Positions 473 to 51,879 of a stretch of 56,293 nucleotides of DNA are shown in pieces (position 1 is the first letter of the stretch; the number at the start of each line of letters is the position of its first letter). The position numbers were made by a program, and so were the translations under genes. This DNA is from a virus. The stretch spans positions 1 through 56,293 of the IMG/VR virus record IMGVR_UViG_3300037517_000147. The stretch is one strand, 5' to 3'. The notes under the pieces are model-generated. The model was not told where the DNA came from. It searched no databases and worked only from the letters and a program-made list of their open reading frames with translations.

Positions 473-672
473 TGTACGAAATCCTGAAGGCCACTTCGGT
501 GGTCGTCAACAACATTGACGAGAAAGTCAAACAACTCGAAGAACACTTGGGCGCGAAAGGGGCCAAGACGTACGACGAGTACTGCGAGATGTGTGGGGAA
601 ATTAAAGGTCTGCTCATCGCTCGCAAATTCATCACAGACCTTACAAAAAACATGGAGCAACTCGATGAGTGA
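472..672 (+). CDS. Small conserved phage protein, unknown function
   Basis: Sixty-six residues, mainly helical, with DEKVKQLEEHLGAKGAKTYDEY followed by a Cys pair (EMCGE and a preceding YC). The ATG overlaps the stop of the portal fragment (TGATG), so the two are translationally coupled; a TTG three bases upstream is a poorer choice. Its own stop overlaps the next gene by 8 nt. It therefore sits in a tight portal / small protein / co-chaperonin group and is probably a head-assembly accessory. I do not recognise the family and assign no function. Confidence 0.75.
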   Translation: MYEILKATSVVVNNIDEKVKQLEEHLGAKGAKTYDEYCEMCGEIKGLLIARKFITDLTKNMEQLDE

Positions 673-1075
673 TCTCGATCTAAGTAGTGCTGTAGACCTG
701 TCTGCGGTGCTGCACAAGAGAGCAGAAGAGAAAGCGAAACAGTTACCAAAGCCAAGCGGCTACAAGATTCTTTGTGCGATTCCCGAGGCAGAGAAAGAGT
801 TTGAAGACAGCGAAGTCGGACTTATCAAGTCTGACATCACCATGCGTAACGAAGAGGTACTGACCACAGTCCTATTCGTGGTTGATCTTGGTCCAGATTG
901 CTATGTGGACAAGGCCAAGTTCCCTACGGGTCCTTGGTGCAAGAAGGGTGACTTTGTGCTGGTACGCCCCAACAGCGGTACCCGCCTGATCATCCACGGC
1001 AGGGAGTTCCGCATCATCAACGATGACACTGTCGAAGGTGTTGTTGAAGACCCACGCGGCATCAAACGCAAATAA
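665..1075 (+). CDS. GroES-like co-chaperonin
   Basis: The 136-residue product has a Cpn10 (GroES) fold signature from about residue 30: PSGYKILCAIPEAE, then a loop, then VVDLGPDCY, KFPTGPWCKKGDFVLV and IHGREFRIINDDTVEGVVED. These match the beta-strand order of GroES. Residues 1-28 are an extra N-terminal extension. The GroES mobile loop would fall at about residues 44-56 (EFEDSEVGLIKSD), where the hydrophobic tripeptide that docks on GroEL is present only in altered form (GLI/LIK). By analogy with T4 gp31 it would cap the host GroEL for capsid folding; the gene lies just before scaffold and capsid genes. No GroEL gene is in the window. The start at 665 is supported by the 8-nt overlap with the previous gene. 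Confidence 0.85.
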   Translation: MSDLDLSSAVDLSAVLHKRAEEKAKQLPKPSGYKILCAIPEAEKEFEDSEVGLIKSDITMRNEEVLTTVLFVVDLGPDCYVDKAKFPTGPWCKKGDFVLVRPNSGTRLIIHGREFRIINDDTVEGVVEDPRGIKRK

Positions 1076-1086
1076 GGAGCGACACG

Positions 1087-2070
1087 ATGGCAAAAGACGA
1101 TGACGATTTCAAGTTCCCCGACGAGGTCAAGGACTCTAAGGGTAAACCCGAAGACGATATTGATGTCTCGTTTGAGGAAGATTCAGACGAAGTAAAGGTC
1201 GAGGTCAAGGACGACACCCCTGCCGAAGACCGCTACGTCGCCCCTCTTTCTGACGAAGTCAAGGAAGAGCTAGAGAAAGTTGACGAGTCGAAAGACTACT
1301 CGCACAACGTCAAGACGAAGTTCAAGCAATATAAGAAGGCTTGGCACGACGAGCGGCGTGCGAAAGAGGCTGCATATCGAGAGCAGCAAGAGGCGCTACA
1401 GATCGCTCAAAACATTCTTGAGGAAAACAAGAAGCTCAAGAGCATGCTGCACAGCGGCGAGAAGGAGCTTATCTCCACGTATCAGACTTCGGCTGAAATG
1501 GAGTTGGAGCAGGCCAAACGGAACTTCAAAGATGCCTACGACTCTGGGGAAGCAGACAGACTGCTAGACGCCCAGCAGGAGATGATGCGGGCGCAGTTGA
1601 AGCTTGATAAGGCCAAAAACTTCAAGCCGACTGTACAAACTGTAGAAAATGATGTACAAACCACACAAAAGCCGCCTGCCCAGCAGCAGATGGACCCGAA
1701 AGTGGCAGCTTGGGTGTCGAAGAACGAATGGTTCGTAGACCCCAATAAGCGCGGAATGCGCCGATTTGCCGAAGGTGTCCATGAAGACTTGGCAGAACGC
1801 TACGGAAGAGCCTTCATCGGCACCAACGAATACTATGAAAGTATCGACAAAGAGGTTCGCAAACGCTTCCCTGAAGAGTTTGGGTCGAACCAATCAAACG
1901 ATGAGGACGAACCACCTCAACGTACTAGACCAAGCACGGTGGTGGCACCCGCGAAGAGAAGTACGGCTCCCAAAAAGGTCGTTCTTACCAAGACGCAGGT
2001 TGGCTTGGCAAAGAAATTTGGACTCACCCCCGAGCAGTATGCTCGTGAACTTATGAAATTGGAGGCTTGA
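1087..2070 (+). CDS. Capsid scaffolding protein
   Basis: A 327-residue, highly charged protein. Residues 1-70 are very acidic (DDDDFKFPDEVKD, FEEDSDEVKVEV). Residues about 75-200 form a long predicted coiled coil (KAAYREQQEALQIAQNILEE, MRAQLKLDKAKNF). The C-terminus is basic with KKFGLTPEQYARELMKLE. An acidic N-terminus, coiled coil and short basic C-terminal capsid-binding helix are the usual layout of podovirus scaffolds, and the gene sits before the capsid gene. AAGGAG at 1074-1079 gives a clear ribosome site. No protease motif is seen, so it is unlikely to be a protease-scaffold fusion. Function is inferred from composition and position. Confidence 0.82.
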   Translation: MAKDDDDFKFPDEVKDSKGKPEDDIDVSFEEDSDEVKVEVKDDTPAEDRYVAPLSDEVKEELEKVDESKDYSHNVKTKFKQYKKAWHDERRAKEAAYREQQEALQIAQNILEENKKLKSMLHSGEKELISTYQTSAEMELEQAKRNFKDAYDSGEADRLLDAQQEMMRAQLKLDKAKNFKPTVQTVENDVQTTQKPPAQQQMDPKVAAWVSKNEWFVDPNKRGMRRFAEGVHEDLAERYGRAFIGTNEYYESIDKEVRKRFPEEFGSNQSNDEDEPPQRTRPSTVVAPAKRSTAPKKVVLTKTQVGLAKKFGLTPEQYARELMKLEA

Positions 2071-3159: not shown

Positions 3160-4068
3160 ATGGCTATTTCACGCGCACAACTGCTCAAGGAACTGCTTCC
3201 TGGCTTGAACGCTCTGTTCGGTCTTTCCTATGCGACTTATCAAGAAGAGCACAAGGAAATCTACGAGACCGAGACTTCCGAGCGTTCGTTTGAAGAGGAA
3301 ACCAAGCTGTCTGGCTTCTCCGCCGCTCCGGTGAAGAACGAGGGCAGTGCGATTGCCTATGACAACGGTCAAGAAGCCTGGACCGCCCGATACAACCACG
3401 AGACCATTGCTCAAGGTTTCTCGCTGACCGAAGAGGCCATCGAAGACAACCTGTATGACAGCCTCGCTGCTCGTTATACCAAGGCTCTGGCACGCTCGAT
3501 GGCTTACACCAAACAAGTCAAGGCTGCTGCTGTTCTGAACAACGGCTTCACCTCTGGCTACAACGGTGGCGACGGCGTTCCTCTGTTCTCTGCTTCGCAC
3601 CCGCTGGTTTCTGGCGGCACCAACAGCAACGTTCCATCTACCCCTGCTGACTTGAACGAGACTTCTCTGGAAGCCGCCGTTATTCAGATCAGCCTGTGGA
3701 CTGACGAGCGTGACCTGCTGATTGCAGCCAAGCCCAAGAAGCTGATTGTTCCGCCTGCTTTGCAGTTCGTTGCAACTCGTCTGTTGGAAACCGAACTCCG
3801 CGTCGGCACCAACGACAACGATATCAACGCCTTGAAGAGCAACGGTTCGGTCTCCGAGGGTTACACCATTAACCACTTCTTGACCGACACCAATGCTTGG
3901 TTCCTGACCACTGACGTGCCTAACGGTATGAAGCACTTTGTGCGCGTGCCGCTGAGCCAGTCGATGGACGGCGACTTTGATACCGGCAACGTCCGTTACA
4001 AGGCCCGTGAGCGTTATTCGTTCGGCTGGTCTGACCCGCTGGGCATGTACGGCTCTCAGGGCGCGTAA
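3160..4068 (+). CDS. Major capsid protein (Mu gpT-like, HK97 fold)
   Basis: The 302-residue product matches the Mu gpT-like capsid family: LLPGLNALFGLSYATY at the start, YETETSERSFEEE, then GFSLTEEAIEDNLYD, the loop DGVPLFSASHPL, and the C-terminal domain segment RYKARERYSFGWSDPLGMYG. The length is typical and there is no cleaved delta domain, in agreement with a separate scaffold gene upstream. The gene is preceded by AAGGAG and followed by a strong double hairpin terminator region, as expected for the most highly expressed structural gene. This is one of the most secure calls in the window. Confidence 0.95.
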   Translation: MAISRAQLLKELLPGLNALFGLSYATYQEEHKEIYETETSERSFEEETKLSGFSAAPVKNEGSAIAYDNGQEAWTARYNHETIAQGFSLTEEAIEDNLYDSLAARYTKALARSMAYTKQVKAAAVLNNGFTSGYNGGDGVPLFSASHPLVSGGTNSNVPSTPADLNETSLEAAVIQISLWTDERDLLIAAKPKKLIVPPALQFVATRLLETELRVGTNDNDINALKSNGSVSEGYTINHFLTDTNAWFLTTDVPNGMKHFVRVPLSQSMDGDFDTGNVRYKARERYSFGWSDPLGMYGSQGA

Positions 4069-4742: not shown

Positions 4743-5018
4743 ATGGCTATCCAATTCGACGTAAAGAGCTTAGAACGAACCACCAGCGGCACTGTGTTCG
4801 CTGGCCCTGCGCGGGTCAAGGGGGTCACGATCTCCCACGCCTCTGGTGGCACCGTCGTCATCAAGGACGGAGGGGCAAGCGGCACAACTGTTTGGTCCTT
4901 CACGGCCCCGGCAGCGGCAGGCTCTACCAACATTCCCATGCCCGGTGACGGGATCAGGTGCAACACAGACATCTATGTCGTTCTCACGAGCGCAACAGCA
5001 ACGGTGGTGTATGGCTGA
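4743..5018 (+). CDS. Small beta-rich virion protein
   Basis: Ninety-one residues with strand-forming runs VKGVTISHASGGTVVIKDGG and TTVWSFTAPAAAGSTNIPMP, ending TDIYVVLTSATATVVYG. It looks like a small surface or decoration protein with a jelly-roll-like pattern. It has an AGGAGG ribosome site and its end overlaps the glycosyltransferase start by 8 nt, so the two genes are co-translated. No known family is assigned. Confidence 0.72.
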   Translation: MAIQFDVKSLERTTSGTVFAGPARVKGVTISHASGGTVVIKDGGASGTTVWSFTAPAAAGSTNIPMPGDGIRCNTDIYVVLTSATATVVYG

Positions 5019-5748
5019 GCAAAAACGAGTTGATCTAACTGGGCGCAAGCTGTTCGTGGGTATCCCGGCATATGACGGGAAGCTCAATATCAAAACGGCG
5101 TTTTCGTTGGCTCAACTCATGCCTATGGCGATGCAGTTGGGGGTCGGGGTGTATCTCTCTGACCTATCCAATTGCTCGATCATCACTATGGCGCGAAATG
5201 CTCTGGTGGCGGAGTTCCTCAAGACCGATGCCACCGAGCTTCTCTTCATTGATGCGGACGTGGTCGTCAAACCTGACGACATTCTGCGGTTGATGGCGCA
5301 AAGTGGCGGCAAAGACATCACTGCCGGGGCGTACCCACGTCGGCTGAAAGAGAAGAAATTTTTCACTGACGTGTACTGGACCGAAGATGGCGGGGTTGAG
5401 ATGGACGGCTCCCTGCTTCGCGTCGAGCGTGTGGGTACAGGATTCATGATGATTCAGCGGCATGTCATCGAGAAGATGATTGCTGCACACCCCGAGTGGG
5501 AGTACGAAGACAAGAAAGGGCCAGCGTATGCCCTTTTTGACTTTGAGTTGAAGGACAAGTACTACATGGGCGAGGACTATCTGTTCTGTGACCGCGCCCG
5601 CGAGATGGGGTTCAAGATTTATCTTGACGCCGAAATCAGTCTGCCGCATATCGGCTCAATGGAATTCACCAGCGACTTTGCCGAAGAGGCGCTCAAGCCG
5701 CTGCTCGAAAGCATCCACAAGGCCAAACTGAAAGTCGTAAATGGCTAA
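5011..5748 (+). CDS. Phage glycosyltransferase, GT-A type
   Basis: The 245-residue product has the N-terminal nucleotide-sugar fold (GRKLFVGIPAYDGKLNIKTA), the helix ARNALVAEFLKTDATE and the metal-binding DxD motif in LLFIDADVVVKP (Asp81, Asp83). A second half follows with GAYPRR, GTGFMMIQRHVIEKM and GEDYLFCDRAREMGFKIYLD. Similar proteins are common in aquatic phages beside structural genes, where they may glycosylate virion proteins or alter host surface sugars; the substrate is unknown. The ATG at 5011 overlaps the preceding gene by 8 nt. The long frame extending further upstream is not needed and lacks a ribosome site. Confidence 0.85.
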   Translation: MAEQKRVDLTGRKLFVGIPAYDGKLNIKTAFSLAQLMPMAMQLGVGVYLSDLSNCSIITMARNALVAEFLKTDATELLFIDADVVVKPDDILRLMAQSGGKDITAGAYPRRLKEKKFFTDVYWTEDGGVEMDGSLLRVERVGTGFMMIQRHVIEKMIAAHPEWEYEDKKGPAYALFDFELKDKYYMGEDYLFCDRAREMGFKIYLDAEISLPHIGSMEFTSDFAEEALKPLLESIHKAKLKVVNG

Positions 5749-5995
5749 GACACCAGCATGGCAACGCAAGGAAGGCAAGTCCGAGAAGGGCGGTTTGAAC
5801 GCCAAGGGGCGAGCCTCTTACAACAAGGCCAATCCGGGCAAGCCCGGACTCAAGCCCCCGCAGCCAGAGGGCGGCTCACGCCGAGACTCTTTTTGTGCCA
5901 GGATGTCTGGAATGAAAGCCAAGCTGACCGGCGAGAAGGCCAAGAAAGACCCGAACAGTCGCATCAACAAGAGCCTGCGGGCGTGGAACTGCTAA
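5741..5995 (+). CDS. Small basic protein, DUF6321-like
   Basis: Eighty-four residues, very basic, with the family pattern TPAWQRKEGKSEKGGLNAKG, then RASYNKANPGKPGLKPPQP, SFCARMSGMKAKLTGEKAK and the ending DPNSRINKSLRAWNC. It resembles the DUF6321 family of small phage proteins of unknown function. Two Cys residues, one at the C-terminus, may be structural. It overlaps the glycosyltransferase by 8 nt. It may bind DNA or the capsid, but that is only suggested by charge. Confidence 0.8.
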   Translation: MAKTPAWQRKEGKSEKGGLNAKGRASYNKANPGKPGLKPPQPEGGSRRDSFCARMSGMKAKLTGEKAKKDPNSRINKSLRAWNC

Positions 5996-6006
5996 GGTGA
6001 CTGATC

Positions 6007-6255
6007 GTGGACATGCTGGTATGGAACATCATTTTGTCGTTTGTGTCTGGCGTTGGTTTGTGGCTGCTCAAGTCACATGCTGATGAAGTCAAACGGCTTG
6101 GTATTTTGTTGAGTAAGACACGAGAAGAAAGCGCTGATAAGTTTGTGACCAAGCAAGACATGCATAACGATGTGAATCGGGTGTTAGCTCGGCTTGATCG
6201 GATGGAAGAGAAGCTTGACTCGTTTATGAAAGAGCAACGCAGTGCCCTCAACTAG
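6007..6255 (+). CDS. Small membrane-anchored coiled-coil protein
   Basis: The 82-residue protein has one N-terminal membrane segment (MLVWNIILSFVSGVGLWLL) followed by a charged coiled coil (RVLARLDRMEEKLDSFMKEQ). This shape resembles XhlA-type lysis accessory proteins, but the gene lies far from the holin/lysozyme pair. A GTG start at 6007 has AAGGTG at the right spacing; an ATG at 6013 is possible. It overlaps the next gene by 14 nt. The function is open: holin accessory or an inner-membrane virion protein. Confidence 0.7.
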   Translation: MDMLVWNIILSFVSGVGLWLLKSHADEVKRLGILLSKTREESADKFVTKQDMHNDVNRVLARLDRMEEKLDSFMKEQRSALN

Positions 6256-6604
6256 CAAGCGTCAACACAATTTCATGGCAGCGGTGGCCAACAACCCAGC
6301 GTTTGCCAAGAAAGCAGGGGTGCCTACTTCGGTCGGCAAAGAATTCGTAAAAGCGGACAAGGGCCGCAAATTTTCAGAAGGTGGTGACATGAAAGAATCG
6401 AAACAGATGATGAAGAAGGAAGTCGGCTTTATGAAGAAGGCTGGCGCTCCCAAGTCCATGATCAAGCATGAAATGAAAGAAGCTGGCATGAAGAAGATGG
6501 CTGGCGGCGGTCTGACTGCTGGTCACAAATCCGCTGACGGGATTACCTCCAAAGGCAAGACCAAAGGCAAACATATCGCCATGAAGCGTGGCGGCAAGTG
6601 CTAA
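6242..6604 (+). CDS. Small basic Gly-Gly protein with SADGITSKGKTKGK C-terminus
   Basis: A 120-residue Lys- and Met-rich protein starting STSKRQHNFMAAVANNPAFA and continuing with AGVPTSVGKEFVKADKGRKF, repeated KSMIKHEMKEAGMKK helices, AGGG, and a C-terminal tag SADGITSKGKTKGKHIAMKR ending GGKC. Relatives of the N-terminal segment are widespread in environmental phages without known function. The start is GTG, overlapping the upstream gene. The tag is related to those of the genes at 6617 and 7112, which suggests a shared binding partner, perhaps in the virion. Confidence 0.75.
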   Translation: MPSTSKRQHNFMAAVANNPAFAKKAGVPTSVGKEFVKADKGRKFSEGGDMKESKQMMKKEVGFMKKAGAPKSMIKHEMKEAGMKKMAGGGLTAGHKSADGITSKGKTKGKHIAMKRGGKC

Positions 6605-6616
6605 TAGGAGCCAATC

Positions 6617-6829
6617 ATGATGGACGACATGCTTGAGAAAAAGAAGCAGCCCAGGGGTATCCGGGGCGGCATCTATACCGAAGATTCGGGTCTGCCTCCT
6701 CCGCAAGATGTTGATGGTGGCTCTGCGCCTCCCCCCAAGAAGCCAAAGAAGATGGCCAAAGGTGGGACCGCTTCTTCCCGTGCTGACGGTTGCGCTGTTC
6801 GCGGTAAGACCCGAGGAAAGATGGTGTAA
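6617..6829 (+). CDS. Small protein with RADGCAVRGKTRGKMV C-terminal tag
   Basis: Seventy residues: a charged start (MLEKKKQPRGIRGGIYTE), a proline-rich linker (GLPPPQDVDG, APPPKKPKK), MAKGG, and the C-terminal tag RADGCAVRGKTRGKMV. A good AGGAG ribosome site precedes two adjacent ATG codons. The protein looks almost unfolded apart from the tag, so the tag is likely its functional part. It is one of a run of tiny late genes between the glycosyltransferase and the neck proteins. Confidence 0.72.
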   Translation: MMDDMLEKKKQPRGIRGGIYTEDSGLPPPQDVDGGSAPPPKKPKKMAKGGTASSRADGCAVRGKTRGKMV

Positions 6830-6831
6830 CC

Positions 6832-7119
6832 ATGATGACCAGCCGTGGCATGGGCGCTATTCGCCCATCTAAAATGCCCAAGGGCGTGACCAAGCCACGT
6901 CGGGATGACACGGACTTCACTCAATACGCCGAGGGCGGCAAAGTCAAGTCCAAGGTCAACGAGGCTGGCAACTACACCAAGCCGGGCATGCGCAAGTCGC
7001 TGTTCGAGTCGATCAAGTCTCGGGCAGTGCAGGGTACGGGTGCAGGCCAATGGTCGGCCCGCAAGGCCCAGCTTCTGGCCAAGCAGTACAAGGCGAAAGG
7101 CGGTGGTTATCGTGGCTGA
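6832..7119 (+). CDS. Small conserved phage protein (KVNEAGNYTKPGMRKSLF type)
   Basis: The 95-residue product has a basic N-terminus (KMPKGVTKPRRDDTD), the motif YAEGGKVKSKVNEAGNYTKP, then MRKSLFESIKSR, GTGAGQWSARKAQLLAKQYK and a Gly-rich end. This pattern is widespread among small virion-region proteins of aquatic phages; no function is known. It begins 2 nt after the preceding stop and overlaps the next gene by 8 nt. The basic, Gly-Gly-containing character matches its neighbours. Confidence 0.78.
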   Translation: MMTSRGMGAIRPSKMPKGVTKPRRDDTDFTQYAEGGKVKSKVNEAGNYTKPGMRKSLFESIKSRAVQGTGAGQWSARKAQLLAKQYKAKGGGYRG

Positions 7120-7585
7120 TAGAGAATACATCAGCGTTCTTGAGCGCGACATGAGTAACCCCGCGTACCGCAAACAGCTTGAAAGGCAACAGGGGTTGCA
7201 AGGGGTATACCCAGAAGCGTTGTTGGCTGGTGTTGGCCGCACTGCACTATCTGGTGTACGAAGCATAAAAAAACCCGACCCCCAAGTGCGGCCGGTAAAA
7301 ATTGGCGAAAAAATTGATGAAGACTTGGTGTGGAAAAGTCTTTCGCCAAAAGAACGTTTAGATGCCTTACGAAAACAAGAAAAATTAGATGAATTTCATA
7401 GCATGATGAGAGCACAGGGTAATGCTGTAAAAGAAAGCGGTAAACGTATGCTTAGAGAAGCTGCGGCACAACCAATGTTTCCTTCAAAAGAAAATAATTC
7501 GTACAAAAAAGGCGGGGTCGTGTCTGCGTCCAAACGCGCAGATGGCTGCTGCCAACGTGGTAAAACACGAGGCAAAATGGTATGA
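7112..7585 (+). CDS. Helical protein with RADGCCQRGKTRGKMV C-terminal tag
   Basis: A 157-residue protein with a mostly helical body (ISVLERDMSNPAYRKQLERQ, SLSPKERLDALRKQEKLDEF) and the same C-terminal tag as the gene at 6617 (RADGCCQRGKTRGKMV), preceded by KKGG. The GTG start at 7112 overlaps the upstream stop region by 8 nt; a longer upstream frame has no suitable start. Bases about 7255-7510 are clearly richer in A and T than the flanks (many AAA and GAA codons), which suggests a recently acquired body joined to a resident tag. Function unknown. Confidence 0.72.
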   Translation: MADREYISVLERDMSNPAYRKQLERQQGLQGVYPEALLAGVGRTALSGVRSIKKPDPQVRPVKIGEKIDEDLVWKSLSPKERLDALRKQEKLDEFHSMMRAQGNAVKESGKRMLREAAAQPMFPSKENNSYKKGGVVSASKRADGCCQRGKTRGKMV

Positions 7586-7815
7586 AAGACCCGCAGCAGT
7601 CGCTCAAGGATTGGAGTGCGCAGAAGTGGCGCACCAAGTCTGGCAAACCGTCTTCTAAGACGGGGGAGCGATATCTGCCTGAAAAAGCCATCAAGGCATT
7701 GACTCCTGCTGAGTATGCCGCCACAACCCGTGCCAAGCGGGCTGGCAAAAAGGTTGGAAAACAATTTGTTAAGCAACCACCCAAGGTGGCGGCGAAAACG
7801 GCAAGGTATAGGTAA
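7582..7815 (+). CDS. DUF5872-like small basic protein
   Basis: Seventy-seven residues: SLKDWSAQKWRTKSGKPSSK, TGERYLPEKAIKALTPAEYA, TTRAKRAGKKVGKQFVKQ and a basic end. This matches the DUF5872 pattern, found in phage and in eukaryotic and viral contexts, with unknown function. It overlaps the previous gene by 4 nt (ATGA), and its stop shares a base with the next ATG (TAATG). The high Lys/Arg content is compatible with DNA binding inside the capsid. Confidence 0.8.
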   Translation: MKDPQQSLKDWSAQKWRTKSGKPSSKTGERYLPEKAIKALTPAEYAATTRAKRAGKKVGKQFVKQPPKVAAKTARYR

Positions 7816-8738
7816 TGGCCACCACATCGGGTACCTCAGCGTTTAACCTTGATCTCAATGAGATCATGGAAGAAGCCTACGAGCGGGCTGGCTTAGAGAT
7901 TCGTACTGGCTACGAGTTTCGCACTGCACGCCGTAGCCTGAACATGCTTACGATTGAGTGGGCCAATCGGGGCATCAACCTGTGGACGGTTGAGCAGGGC
8001 CAGATCGTCATGAACACTGGGCAGGCCACGTACGCCATCCCGACCGATACGATTGACCTGCTTGACCAAGTGATCCGTACTCAGGCTAACGGGCTGAATC
8101 AGACTGACATCAACATCAGCCGCATCTCTGAGCCGACGTATTCGACGATTCCCAACAAACTAGCTCAAGGGCGTCCAATTCAGGTCTGGATCAACCGCCA
8201 GACTGGCGCGTCGTACTCAACGAATGTCACGCTGGTTGGAAGTATCAATGCGTCTGCCACGACCATAAACGTGAGCAACGCCGCAAACCTGCCTGCGGCG
8301 GGGTTCATCAACATCGGTAGCGAAACCATCGTCTATCAGAACGTCGATGGCAACCAGCTTCTGAATTGCTTCCGTGGGCAGAACTACACGACCGCCGCTT
8401 CTCATTCCAGCGGCGCAGCGATCAGTGTAACGAACCTGCCGTCTATCAATGTCTGGCCTACCCCCAACGCTCCCGGTGACCAATACATCTTTGTCTATTG
8501 GCGGCTGCGCCGTATGCAGGATGCGGGCAGCGGCATAACGATTCAGGACATCCCCTTCCGCTTGATTCCCTGTCTGGTTGCAGGTTTGGCGTTCTATGTC
8601 GCATCCAAGCGGCCAGAAATACCGCCTGATCGTGTGGGTATGCTCAAGCAAGAGTACGAGCAGCAGTGGTTGCTTGCTTCACAGGAAGACCGGGAGAAGG
8701 CTCCTGAGCGGTTTGTGCCTAGGCAGATGTTCTACTGA
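7815..8738 (+). CDS. Head-tail connector / P22 gp4-like protein with inserted domain
   Basis: A 307-residue protein. Residues 10-75 (NLDLNEIMEEAYERAGLEIR, RRSLNMLTIEWANRGINLW) and residues about 215-305 (WPTPNAPGDQYIFVYWRLRR, IPFRLIPCLVAGLAFYVASK, LKQEYEQQWLLASQEDREKA) match the P22 gp4-like tail accessory fold that closes the portal after packaging. Residues about 136-202 look inserted: NASATTINVSNAANLPAAGF, IGSETIVYQNVDG and a Ser/Thr-rich end, a beta-rich module also seen in fibre-like proteins. The insertion may form an extra appendage or fibre contact. The start codon shares a base with the previous stop. Confidence 0.82.
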   Translation: MATTSGTSAFNLDLNEIMEEAYERAGLEIRTGYEFRTARRSLNMLTIEWANRGINLWTVEQGQIVMNTGQATYAIPTDTIDLLDQVIRTQANGLNQTDINISRISEPTYSTIPNKLAQGRPIQVWINRQTGASYSTNVTLVGSINASATTINVSNAANLPAAGFINIGSETIVYQNVDGNQLLNCFRGQNYTTAASHSSGAAISVTNLPSINVWPTPNAPGDQYIFVYWRLRRMQDAGSGITIQDIPFRLIPCLVAGLAFYVASKRPEIPPDRVGMLKQEYEQQWLLASQEDREKAPERFVPRQMFY

Positions 8739-9185: not shown

Positions 9186-9341
9186 ATGGACAAGATGAAA
9201 CAGGTCGCTAAGGCAGAAGTGAAGGCGCATGAAAAGCGCATGCACAAGGCCAAAGCCATGCGTAAAGGCGGCGTGACCGGCGAAGCGATGCGCAAGTTCG
9301 GTCGTAATCTTGCTCGTGCCAAGAACCAAAGCGGGGGCTGA
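9186..9341 (+). CDS. 51-residue basic Met/Lys/Ala helical protein
   Basis: A short gene with AAGGAG at 9174-9179 seven bases before its ATG. The product begins MDKMKQVAKAEVKAHEKRMH and ends with a Gly-Gly turn (RKGGVTGEAMRKFGRNLARA). It is a strongly basic amphipathic helix pair. It lies 10 nt after the zinc-ribbon gene and 2 nt before the next, so both ends fit the operon spacing exactly. Function unknown; it may bind DNA or the portal vertex. Confidence 0.7.
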   Translation: MDKMKQVAKAEVKAHEKRMHKAKAMRKGGVTGEAMRKFGRNLARAKNQSGG

Positions 9342-9343
9342 TC

Positions 9344-9607
9344 ATGGCCAAATTTAGTGACAAAAGAATGGGCAAGGAAGTTGGCCAAGCCAGCGTCTAT
9401 GCTCAGCCGCATACGATGTCCGGTTCGGCAGTTGACGTGACCAACGCCATTCCAGTTGTGTCCGGTGCCAAACTCATGAACGACATGAACGTGGGCGTAG
9501 GCGCAATCAGCAAAGGCAACTACAAGCCGATCAAGACTGACGGTATTGTGATGCGTGGCGCTGGCGCAGCTACCAAGGGCATCAAGTCTCGGGGTCCGAT
9601 GGCATGA
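9344..9607 (+). CDS. Small conserved phage protein ending in MRGAGAATKGIKSRGPMA
   Basis: An 87-residue product with a basic N-terminus (KFSDKRMGKEVGQASVYAQP), a middle part SGAKLMNDMNVGVGAISKGN and a well conserved C-terminal segment KTDGIVMRGAGAATKGIKSR ending GPMA. That C-terminal pattern recurs in many aquatic phage genomes beside neck genes. It overlaps the following adaptor gene by 4 nt (ATGA). It is likely a minor virion component; no function is known. Confidence 0.78.
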   Translation: MAKFSDKRMGKEVGQASVYAQPHTMSGSAVDVTNAIPVVSGAKLMNDMNVGVGAISKGNYKPIKTDGIVMRGAGAATKGIKSRGPMA

Positions 9608-50109: not shown

Positions 50110-50398
50110 TTCGCTCTCCTTCTTTCGTTAGATCGTCCATCCATGACAGCACATCGCGCCACATGTCTCTGGACATGGTTTCAGCCTCTAGTTCCTTCAG
50201 CGCGTGGAAGTGCGCAGCGGGGCCGTAGGCATCGATGAGAAACTCAGCAATTTGCTTCGTTATGCGTGCCCTGCGCGGGTCAGTAGCGTTGGGGTCATCC
50301 ATGTGTATCTTCCTGCCTTTCTCAACAGCGTTCAGGTACGCAAGATGCTCGTACATTCGCGCTATGAGGGCCTCGACTGAGTCAGTCATCTCTGACAT
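50093..50398 (-). CDS. Small helical early protein
   Basis: A 101-residue helical protein: SEMTDSVEALIARMYEHLAY, LNAVEKGRKIHMDDPNATDP, RARITKQIAEFLIDAYGPAA and RDMWRDVLSWMDDLTKEGER. Starts are ambiguous: ATG at 50398 or 50389, both inside the end of the VWA gene, and neither with a strong ribosome site. It lies directly after the VWA/metallopeptidase gene and may belong to that group. Confidence 0.68.
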   Translation of the reverse strand: MSEMTDSVEALIARMYEHLAYLNAVEKGRKIHMDDPNATDPRRARITKQIAEFLIDAYGPAAHFHALKELEAETMSRDMWRDVLSWMDDLTKEGERNEPEL

Positions 50399-51692
50399 GG
50401 ACAACTTTCGATCCACTTGGGGGTGAGAAGCTAAAGTTCTGCGTCACCATCCACAGGGTTGGGCTGCTGATGTTCCACTTGACGTTGTCCTCGACGTAGC
50501 CGTCAGTGAACATGATGACGCACTCAGCTTGCAGCTTTTCCTTGTTGATGTAGTCAGCCACGCACCCAGCGTGAGTACCACCACCGCCTTGCGGCTTGAG
50601 CAGACCCGCGATGTTCTGGTAGTTGTCTTTGAAGACTTGCTCACCATGCACAGCCGTGTCCCACCACAACACCCGAACCTTCTCGGGCGCACAAAGGTCG
50701 CAGATAGATACCAGTTCTGAGGCGAACTCAGTAAGCTGCTGCAAACCAATCGAGCCTGATGTGTCGATGGCGATGATGACCTCACCGATAGTCTCGTTCT
50801 CCACGCTTGGCAGATAAATGTCGTTAGCCATCTGCCGCTTATTGAGACGGCGCCAGGTGAACTCGTCCTTGCCCTTCATGGATGAAGACACAAAGTCACG
50901 CAGGGCCTCGCGCCAATCGACCTTCGGCTTGAGCAACTCTGAGATGACACGGGGCACTTTCGCACCCATGCGCCCAGCCAGCATTCCACCCTCACGCAGA
51001 GCCTTGTCTATCGCATCGTTGATCTCTTTGACTTCCTCGTGACTCATGCCGTCAAGCATCTTGTCAAAGTCATGCTCGTCTTGCTGAGAGATGTCATAGG
51101 TCTTGCCGTTGACTGTGACGGTGTCCCACTCGTCGCCATTGCCTTGACCTCCACCCTCCGGTGGATCGCTACCTTGGTCGTCGCCTTCACCCTTCTGGCC
51201 CTTCTGACCCTTCTGGCCTTTCGGTGGTTTGGGGCACGGCTTGGCGTGTTGCTTGAGATAGTTGTAGACCTCGCGCATCGACCAGTTGTGAAACATATCA
51301 TCATGCACAGCACCATCAGGCAGGCGCACGATAGGCTCGGATGAACCACCGATTGTTCCTTTGATGTTCTCAATGATGTCGTTGACAACAAAGTCGGCCG
51401 CAAGGTTCGCCATCTTCGCGTTCTCTTTGAACATGCCCCGACCATAGGGAACCTGCTTGAGCGCCACGTGCAGGTTCTCGTGCAGGATCAGACCTCGACA
51501 CTTGGCCTCGTCGGTGATCGTCTCCAAGAACGTCCTGCTGTAGCGTTTGTTTATGCCATCGGTGTATGCGGTGAACGCCGCATCGACCACCTCGCTCGTG
51601 CCCATGAGCATCACGCCCGAGTACAGCGCCGTCTCTGGATGCTTCATCAGCGCAACGTGTGCGCGTTTGACTCGTGTCTCTTGCTTCGACAT
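50382..51692 (-). CDS. VWA-like metallopeptidase-domain protein (DUF2201/CobT-like), MoxR partner
   Basis: A 436-residue protein. N-terminal DUF2201-type domain with an HExxH-like ILHENLHVAL (His71, Glu72, His75). A Lys/Gly/Gln-rich linker follows (KPPKGQKGQKGQKGEGDD, about 155-185). The C-terminal VWA-like domain has the MIDAS pattern AIDTSGSIG (Asp310 to Ser314), a Thr in GGGGTHAG and MFTDGYVED. Proteins of this type act as partners of MoxR/CbbQ AAA+ ATPases in metal insertion or protein remodelling. The ATG at 51692 has AAGGAGGT seven bases upstream, a near-perfect ribosome site. Confidence 0.88.
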   Translation of the reverse strand: MSKQETRVKRAHVALMKHPETALYSGVMLMGTSEVVDAAFTAYTDGINKRYSRTFLETITDEAKCRGLILHENLHVALKQVPYGRGMFKENAKMANLAADFVVNDIIENIKGTIGGSSEPIVRLPDGAVHDDMFHNWSMREVYNYLKQHAKPCPKPPKGQKGQKGQKGEGDDQGSDPPEGGGQGNGDEWDTVTVNGKTYDISQQDEHDFDKMLDGMSHEEVKEINDAIDKALREGGMLAGRMGAKVPRVISELLKPKVDWREALRDFVSSSMKGKDEFTWRRLNKRQMANDIYLPSVENETIGEVIIAIDTSGSIGLQQLTEFASELVSICDLCAPEKVRVLWWDTAVHGEQVFKDNYQNIAGLLKPQGGGGTHAGCVADYINKEKLQAECVIMFTDGYVEDNVKWNISSPTLWMVTQNFSFSPPSGSKVVHVRDD

Positions 51693-51693
51693 A

Positions 51694-51879
51694 TCAGACC
51701 TCCTTGAACTCAAATGAATCTTCCGACTCGATTACTTTCATCTTGCCCTTGGCAATGCGATGGAGCAGTTCAGCAGTCAAGAACTTGTGCATTCTTAGAT
51801 CATGCTTGGACTGCTGCCATGCTGCCGTTGCTGCAATTGCCCAAATGAAAAGGGCGATCTCTGTCATGGTGACTTCCAT
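51694..51879 (-). CDS. Small membrane protein between MoxR and VWA genes
   Basis: A 61-residue protein with one N-terminal membrane segment (TEIALFIWAIAATAAWQQ) and a charged cytoplasmic-type tail (RMHKFLTAELLHRIAKGKMK, ESEDSFEFKEV). It starts 27 nt after a leader hairpin, with GGAAGGAAG upstream, and ends 1 nt before the VWA start region. Its place suggests that it could anchor the AAA+/VWA complex at the membrane, which is inference. Confidence 0.72.
   Translation of the reverse strand: MEVTMTEIALFIWAIAATAAWQQSKHDLRMHKFLTAELLHRIAKGKMKVIESEDSFEFKEV

What the first reader, a model, noticed from the sequence alone, without database searches (positions are those of the whole stretch)
6242..7585. 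Shared C-terminal tag ADG-x3-(R/K)GKT(R/K)GK on three small late proteins
RADGCAVRGKTRGKMV (6617 gene), RADGCCQRGKTRGKMV (7112 gene) and SADGITSKGKTKGKHIAM (6242 gene) end otherwise unrelated proteins. One of these bodies lies in an A/T-rich, possibly acquired stretch, yet keeps the tag. A common tag on different bodies suggests a sorting, capsid-targeting or partner-binding signal, a feature I do not know to be described.
Basis: seen in the sequence. Interest (0 to 1): 0.6.

Follow-up and report, generated by a model that had tools for sequence, protein, structure and literature searches.

The report
Shared C-terminal tag on phage proteins
A large, mostly uncultured group of water-dwelling phages attaches the same short tail-end tag to about a hundred apparently unrelated small proteins made next to the capsid genes; this looks like an undescribed address label, most likely for getting variable proteins into the virus particle.

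Summary
ADGxxx(R/K)GKT(R/K)G occurs exactly three times in six frames of the window, always at or near the C-terminus of genes 6242, 6617 and 7112; BLASTP between the three aligns only the tag. In 194 IMG/VR loci plus the window, 385 distinct tagged proteins fall into 104 body clusters; consensus KKGGxVSSASKRADG(I/C)AQ(R/K)GKT(R/K)G(K/R)M(V/C)-stop. DUF6321 is found both with (14) and without (114) the tag, so the tag is a module, not paralogy. Codons differ while residues persist, so selection acts on the peptide. The genes lie between major capsid protein (MCP) and portal adaptor: 59/59 MCP loci with enough downstream sequence carry a tag, and 20/20 motif loci with enough upstream sequence have this MCP. 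Phages with 90-95% identical MCPs share only about 6% of accessory tagged bodies. Anatomically this resembles T4 internal proteins (constant targeting peptide, interchangeable bodies, hotspot), but C-terminal. Best explanation: a prohead/virion-targeting tag for variable internal proteins (about 0.5). Virion presence, partner and injection are untested. Not found in Pfam, PHROGs, PADLOC or the papers searched.

The parts
6242..6604 (+). Tagged protein 1 (120 aa). N-terminal ~43-aa three-helix domain shared with jumbo-phage proteins, then low-confidence helices, tag, and conserved MKxGGKxC end
   Evidence: phrog_16759 E=2.4e-20; AlphaFold2 pLDDT 81-95 for residues 1-40 and about 50 over the tag; cluster 0 with 107 members
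6533..6568 (+). Tag ADGITSKGKTKG, 11 aa before the stop
6617..6829 (+). Tagged protein 2 (70 aa), body family containing PPPQDVDGGSA (cluster 3)
   Evidence: no Pfam or PHROG hit
6779..6826 (+). Exact C-terminal tag RADGCAVRGKTRGKMV
7112..7585 (+). Tagged protein 3 (157 aa), body in the A/T-rich stretch (cluster 10)
   Evidence: no Pfam or PHROG hit
7535..7582 (+). Exact C-terminal tag RADGCCQRGKTRGKMV
   Evidence: only 3 of 13 comparable codons match those of the 6617 tag
5741..5995 (+). DUF6321 protein, untagged here; the same body carries the tag in some relatives (e.g. L006, L025, L065)
   Evidence: Pfam PF19846 E=1e-18; 14 tagged, 114 untagged relatives
3160..4068 (+). Major capsid protein of the lineage to which the tag is linked
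   Evidence: phrog_371 major head protein; linkage
1087..2070 (+). Probable scaffolding protein (acidic, hydrophilic); candidate partner of the basic tag
   Evidence: sequence, position before the MCP and counterparts in relatives; inference
6832..7119 (+). Core small protein between tagged genes, never tagged in relatives (0 of 133)
   Evidence: phrog_17747
7582..7815 (+). Core small protein after the last tagged gene, never tagged (0 of 90)
   Evidence: phrog_14910
7815..8738 (+). SU10-type portal adaptor; right boundary of the tagged-gene locus
   Evidence: PF24175 E=2.3e-7; position statistics

Best explanation
The tag is a short, disordered docking peptide, normally at the very C-terminus, that brings many different small and mostly disordered accessory proteins to one shared partner in the assembling head, so that they are built into the virion as internal (possibly ejected) proteins. 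The locus between the capsid/cement genes and the portal adaptor is a slot in which bodies are exchanged quickly while the tag is kept. Shown: the constant tag, unrelated and exchangeable bodies, selection on the peptide, position, and linkage to one MCP lineage. Inferred: that the partner is the prohead (the scaffold or the inner face of the MCP), that products enter the virion, and that bodies act inside the particle or the newly infected host.
For: Constant tag on 104 body clusters, with tag identity across clusters 0.72 against within-cluster body identity 0.41. DUF6321 with and without an appended tag. No body-to-body profile similarity above 46% probability. Different synonymous codons for the same residues. 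Tag genes sit between MCP and portal adaptor: 20/20 and 59/59 linkage, and the RGRTKGR variant set also lies in phages of this MCP and adaptor family. Rapid body turnover: 6% of non-cluster-0 bodies shared at 90-95% MCP identity. The tag region of 6242 is predicted disordered, as for a peptide ligand. The N-terminal domain of the 6242 body also begins CBB gene 322, and CBB_322 was found in virions with 30 unique peptides (PMC5259590). Precedents: T4 Ip1-3 share only a capsid-directing leader (PMC12373910), and a ~10-aa capsid targeting sequence can encapsidate almost any protein (PMC7697877).
Against: No virion proteomics of any tagged protein was found. Two defining T4 features are absent or unknown: the tag is C-terminal, and cleavage is untested. 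A minority class carries the motif at the N-terminus of a ~64-aa protein beyond the adaptor, so the signal is not strictly C-terminal. 67 of 82 bodies look disordered by composition, which fits enzyme-like or inhibitor cargo poorly. Linkage to the MCP is also linkage to every other core gene of the same phage lineage, so it does not identify the partner. The virion evidence for CBB_322 concerns the N-terminal domain of 6242, not the tag.
Confidence: 0.5

Rival explanations
1. The tag is a docking motif for a phage or host partner other than the prohead (for example a chaperone, an assembly factor at the portal/adaptor vertex, a membrane or a nucleoid site); the proteins act in the infected cell or on the neck rather than inside the head.
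For: Nothing shows virion location. The genes abut the portal-adaptor gene and the phage carries its own GroES-like gene upstream. The minority N-terminal class lies beyond the adaptor.
Against: Strict confinement to the head-gene region, and the likeness of one body's N-terminal domain to a virion protein of CBB.
Confidence: 0.25
2. The tagged proteins are basic, disordered DNA-condensing or space-filling internal proteins; the tag is a basic nucleic-acid-binding tail rather than a specific targeting peptide.
For: Tag median net charge +4, bodies median +5; most bodies disordered by composition.
Against: Much more than charge is conserved: D, G, G, K, T, G at fixed positions, a fixed end three residues after the core, and mostly hydrophobic last two residues. 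The 6617 body has zero net charge.
Confidence: 0.15
3. Simple paralogy: one gene family that duplicated and diverged so fast that only the C-terminus is still recognisable.
For: Many bodies are low-complexity and fast-evolving, so some of the 104 clusters are probably remote relatives of one another.
Against: DUF6321 and the phrog_16759 domain are separate families known with and without the tag. Profile comparisons of 16 clusters show no shared body. BLASTP of the window trio aligns only the tag.
Confidence: 0.08
4. The conserved element acts as DNA or RNA (recombination site, regulatory or translational-coupling element) and the peptide is a by-product.
For: The tag often ends at a gene junction and would be a convenient crossover point for body exchange (inference).
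Against: Several synonymous codons are used at every invariant residue; the window pair shares 3 of 13 codons; within-genome synonymous identity is 47% against 42% between genomes and 37% expected. Tags were not detected as DNA repeats.
Confidence: 0.02

Closest known systems
T4 internal proteins (IPI, IPII, IPIII) with the capsid targeting sequence (CTS)
   Same: Short terminal signal shared by otherwise unrelated small proteins, several per phage, in a variable hotspot (PMC12373910, PMC7697877).
   Different: CTS is N-terminal, about 10 aa and removed by a head maturation protease; this tag is C-terminal, about 16-27 aa, with no evidence of cleavage and no known virion presence.
Encapsulin cargo-loading peptides (from general knowledge)
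   Same: Short, usually C-terminal peptides on diverse proteins that dock on the inside of an HK97-fold shell.
   Different: Different system and sequence; there is no evidence yet that this tag binds a shell.
Scaffolding-protein C-termini (P22, 80alpha) that contact the MCP N-arm (PMC12749128)
   Same: A terminal peptide docking on the procapsid interior is an established mode of binding.
   Different: Those belong to the scaffold itself, not to interchangeable accessory proteins.
DUF6321 (PF19846) and phrog_16759
   Same: Two of the bodies belong to these families.
   Different: Members of both are found without the tag (DUF6321 in the window itself; phiKZ 165.1 for the other), so the tag is not part of the family.

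Membership tests
T4-type internal proteins with a capsid targeting sequence | One short terminal signal shared by proteins with otherwise unrelated bodies | tested here: met
   104 body clusters, one tag
T4-type internal proteins with a capsid targeting sequence | Signal at the N-terminus | tested here: not met
   Of 242 motif matches 151 end exactly 3 aa before the stop; proteins with fewer than 25 aa before the tag are a minority (45 of 385)
T4-type internal proteins with a capsid targeting sequence | Variable hotspot with turnover among close relatives | tested here: met
T4-type internal proteins with a capsid targeting sequence | Products present in the virion and injected | not testable with these tools
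   No proteomics of a tag-bearing phage was found
T4-type internal proteins with a capsid targeting sequence | Signal removed by a head maturation protease | not tested
   Needs mass spectrometry; no protease gene was sought systematically
Encapsulin cargo-loading peptides | Peptide binds the inner face of an HK97-fold shell | not testable with these tools
   No complex prediction available; the tag had no credible PDB match (one repeat protein, no stretch significant on its own)
Paralogous gene family | Homology over the whole protein | tested here: not met
phrog_16759 (N-terminal domain of 6242) | Match to the family profile | tested here: met
   E=2.4e-20, residues 1-46
Described tag or motif family in Pfam, PHROGs or PADLOC | Any family model matched by many tagged proteins | tested here: not met
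   Of 98 cluster representatives no family is matched by more than one member; the only strong hits are DUF6321 and its PHROG equivalents, two further Pfam hits are marginal, none in PADLOC

The most novel reading that the evidence does not exclude
A large lineage of tailed phages uses a universal C-terminal cargo tag to load a fast-evolving repertoire of accessory proteins into its capsid for delivery with the genome, an independently evolved C-terminal counterpart of the T4 capsid targeting sequence that could mark hundreds of uncharacterised injected proteins by sequence alone.
Probability: 0.3. Interest if true: 0.85.

Novelty: new variant of a known kind. Interest (0 to 1): 0.62.

Why it matters
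If the tag is a loading signal, it gives a sequence handle for collecting virion-internal and possibly injected proteins from hundreds of uncultured phage genomes, where nearly all of the 98 cluster representatives matched no PHROG family. It would also supply a new short peptide for loading foreign proteins into a phage capsid. Even if the partner is something else, one peptide kept on about 100 unrelated bodies in a locus that turns over at 90-95% capsid identity is a strong and testable case of modular protein evolution.

Tried and rejected
Paralogy and a DNA-level element were tested and rejected. The PDB hit to a designed pentatricopeptide protein is a sum of insignificant repeats. The tblastn of a bare 28-aa tag against cultured phages found nothing, although a cultured phage does carry a variant, so that negative is not informative (low-complexity filtering is a likely cause). 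Most of the 74 hits in bacterial genome contigs are chance matches inside unrelated ORFs; real tags are on five contigs (L131, L134, L138, L173, L177), probably phage contigs in the bins. Two other conserved ends nearby (GR[NG]LA[KR] and RGxGAAxKGxxxRGPM) were checked as possible further tags: each occurs about once per locus and looks like one family rather than a multi-body tag. Fold searches with the 6242 model gave no useful PDB match, only other phage proteins, mostly uncharacterised, with the same N-terminal domain. The T4-like effector reading was tempered because most bodies look disordered and none matches PADLOC.

Full report
WHAT WAS CHECKED. The genes are 6242-6604, 6617-6829 and 7112-7585. 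Shuffled ORFs never produce the motif. BLASTP between the three proteins aligns the tag region only. The DNA of the tags was not reported as a repeat, and the 6617 and 7112 tags share only 3 of 13 comparable codons, so the likeness is kept at the protein level. The A/T-rich dip in the 7112 body is real (36.5% G+C at 7300-7499); acquisition is plausible but not shown.

THE TAG IS WIDESPREAD. To avoid selecting on the motif alone, relatives of the window's major capsid protein (MCP) were fetched separately. In the joint set (194 loci plus the window) there are 177 distinct exact tags with the consensus KKGGxVSSASKRADG(I/C)AQ(R/K)GKT(R/K)G(K/R)M(V/C)-stop. A profile of the last 22 residues finds 399 ORFs, 385 distinct proteins, in 162 of 195 sequences, one to five per locus. 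There are three classes: A, exact C-terminal; B, the 6242 type, with a further conserved MKxGGKxC end; C, the motif at the N-terminus of a ~64-aa protein beyond the adaptor. A variant RGRTKGR form, found by separate scans, behaves the same: in those loci 79 of 88 matches end three residues before the stop.

THE BODIES ARE DIFFERENT. The 340 proteins with a usable body form 104 BLASTP clusters; the window's three are in clusters 0, 3 and 10. Profile-profile comparison of the 16 clusters with three or more members gives no pair above 46% probability, and that over 20 columns only. Within clusters the bodies are 41% identical on average and tags 78%; between clusters tags are still 72% identical. 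The cleanest evidence for modularity is DUF6321: 114 relatives lack the tag, ending at RAWNC or RAWKC like the window protein in those inspected, and 14 carry the tag appended after that end. Likewise the N-terminal domain of 6242 stands almost alone in phiKZ gene 165.1 and begins larger proteins in jumbo phages. Three core small genes of the same interval are never tagged: 0 of 133, 0 of 90 and 0 of 66. Some small clusters are surely diverged relatives of one another, so 104 is an upper estimate of independent bodies.

WHERE THE GENES ARE. All 20 motif loci with at least 6 kb upstream of the first tag gene have the window-type MCP upstream on the same strand, and all 59 MCP loci with at least 5 kb downstream carry a tag. 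The first tag gene starts a median of 1.86 kb after the MCP. In 49 of 67 loci with both markers all tagged genes lie between MCP and portal adaptor; in the remaining 18 a copy lies beyond the adaptor, in the examples inspected the class C gene. In long contigs the tags found are confined to this region; 14 of 16 such contigs encode the MCP, and in the two that do not the tags lie near a contig end (within about 5 kb). Among phages with 90-95% identical MCPs only 6% of the non-cluster-0 tagged bodies are shared (150 pairs). The nearest cultured relatives are the Pag-Yong1, Pra-JY27 and MinM2 records (MCP 72% identical). Pag-Yong1 and MinM2, the two whose DNA was read, carry one tag variant, RDGCAKRGRTKGRFI, on a 308-aa protein in the same interval. 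The fetched regions of DSL-LC04, HTVC023P, CRP-902 and an Alcaligenes phage show no tag.

WHAT IT PROBABLY DOES. A constant terminal peptide on exchangeable bodies is what a docking or address tag looks like. AlphaFold2 gives a confident helical N-terminal domain for 6242 and a low-confidence, unstructured tag, as expected of a peptide that folds on a partner. The position in the head operon and the likeness to T4 internal proteins, which share only a capsid-directing leader (PMC12373910) and whose ~10-aa CTS can encapsidate almost any protein (PMC7697877), make virion loading the leading idea. Indirect support: the N-terminal domain of 6242 also begins CBB gene 322, and CBB_322 was identified in virions with 30 unique peptides (PMC5259590); this assumes that the GenBank gp322 and the paper's CBB_322 are the same gene. 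That is evidence about the body domain, not about the tag. Candidate partners are the acidic probable scaffold 1087-2070 and the inner face of the MCP, where scaffold termini dock in other phages (PMC12749128); this is inference.

LIMITS. No tool here could predict complexes, and no virion proteomics of a tag-bearing phage was found. The tag is linked to one phage lineage, so linkage to the MCP does not single out the MCP as partner. Most bodies look disordered by composition (67 of 82), so the cargo may be structural or DNA-associated rather than effectors. Literature searches cover open-access papers only; no description of the tag was found in them.

Noticed in passing
window 9344-9607: Protein ending TDGIVMRGAGAATKGIKSRGPMA. 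The RGxGAAxKG end, always 8 aa before the stop, occurs once per locus in 85 loci: a conserved C-terminus of what looks like one family here. HTVC023P has a similar-looking end, GGGAAVRGMGFKGVF, on another protein (L126 15698-16081).
   Followed up: partly
window 9186-9341; L011, L019, L028, L032: Window protein ending MRKFGRNLARAKNQSGG. In relatives a similar end follows an N-terminal copy of the ADGxxxxGKTKG motif in a ~64-aa protein, so the motif can also sit at an N-terminus.
   Followed up: partly
window 6242-6370: The ~43-aa domain MPSxSKxQHNFMAAVAxNPxFAKKxGVPxSVGKEF is 74% identical to most of a 58-aa protein of phiKZ (165.1) and begins proteins annotated as structural in 121Q, GAP32 and CBB; function unknown.
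   Followed up: partly
window 5011-5748: Glycosyltransferase-like gene between the head genes and the tagged genes (phrog_1574 and phrog_12406).
   Followed up: no
window 515-1075: GroES-like co-chaperonin gene upstream of the scaffold and MCP, also annotated in the cultured relatives whose upstream region was fetched.
   Followed up: no
window 50382-51713, - strand: Putative metallopeptidase plus VWA-like domain protein (DUF2201_N and DUF2201) in the half of the genome with minus-strand genes.
   Followed up: no
L177 162-2003: A contig binned as Patulibacter carries a tag at the end of a 613-aa open frame, longer than the tagged proteins seen elsewhere; true start unknown.
   Followed up: no
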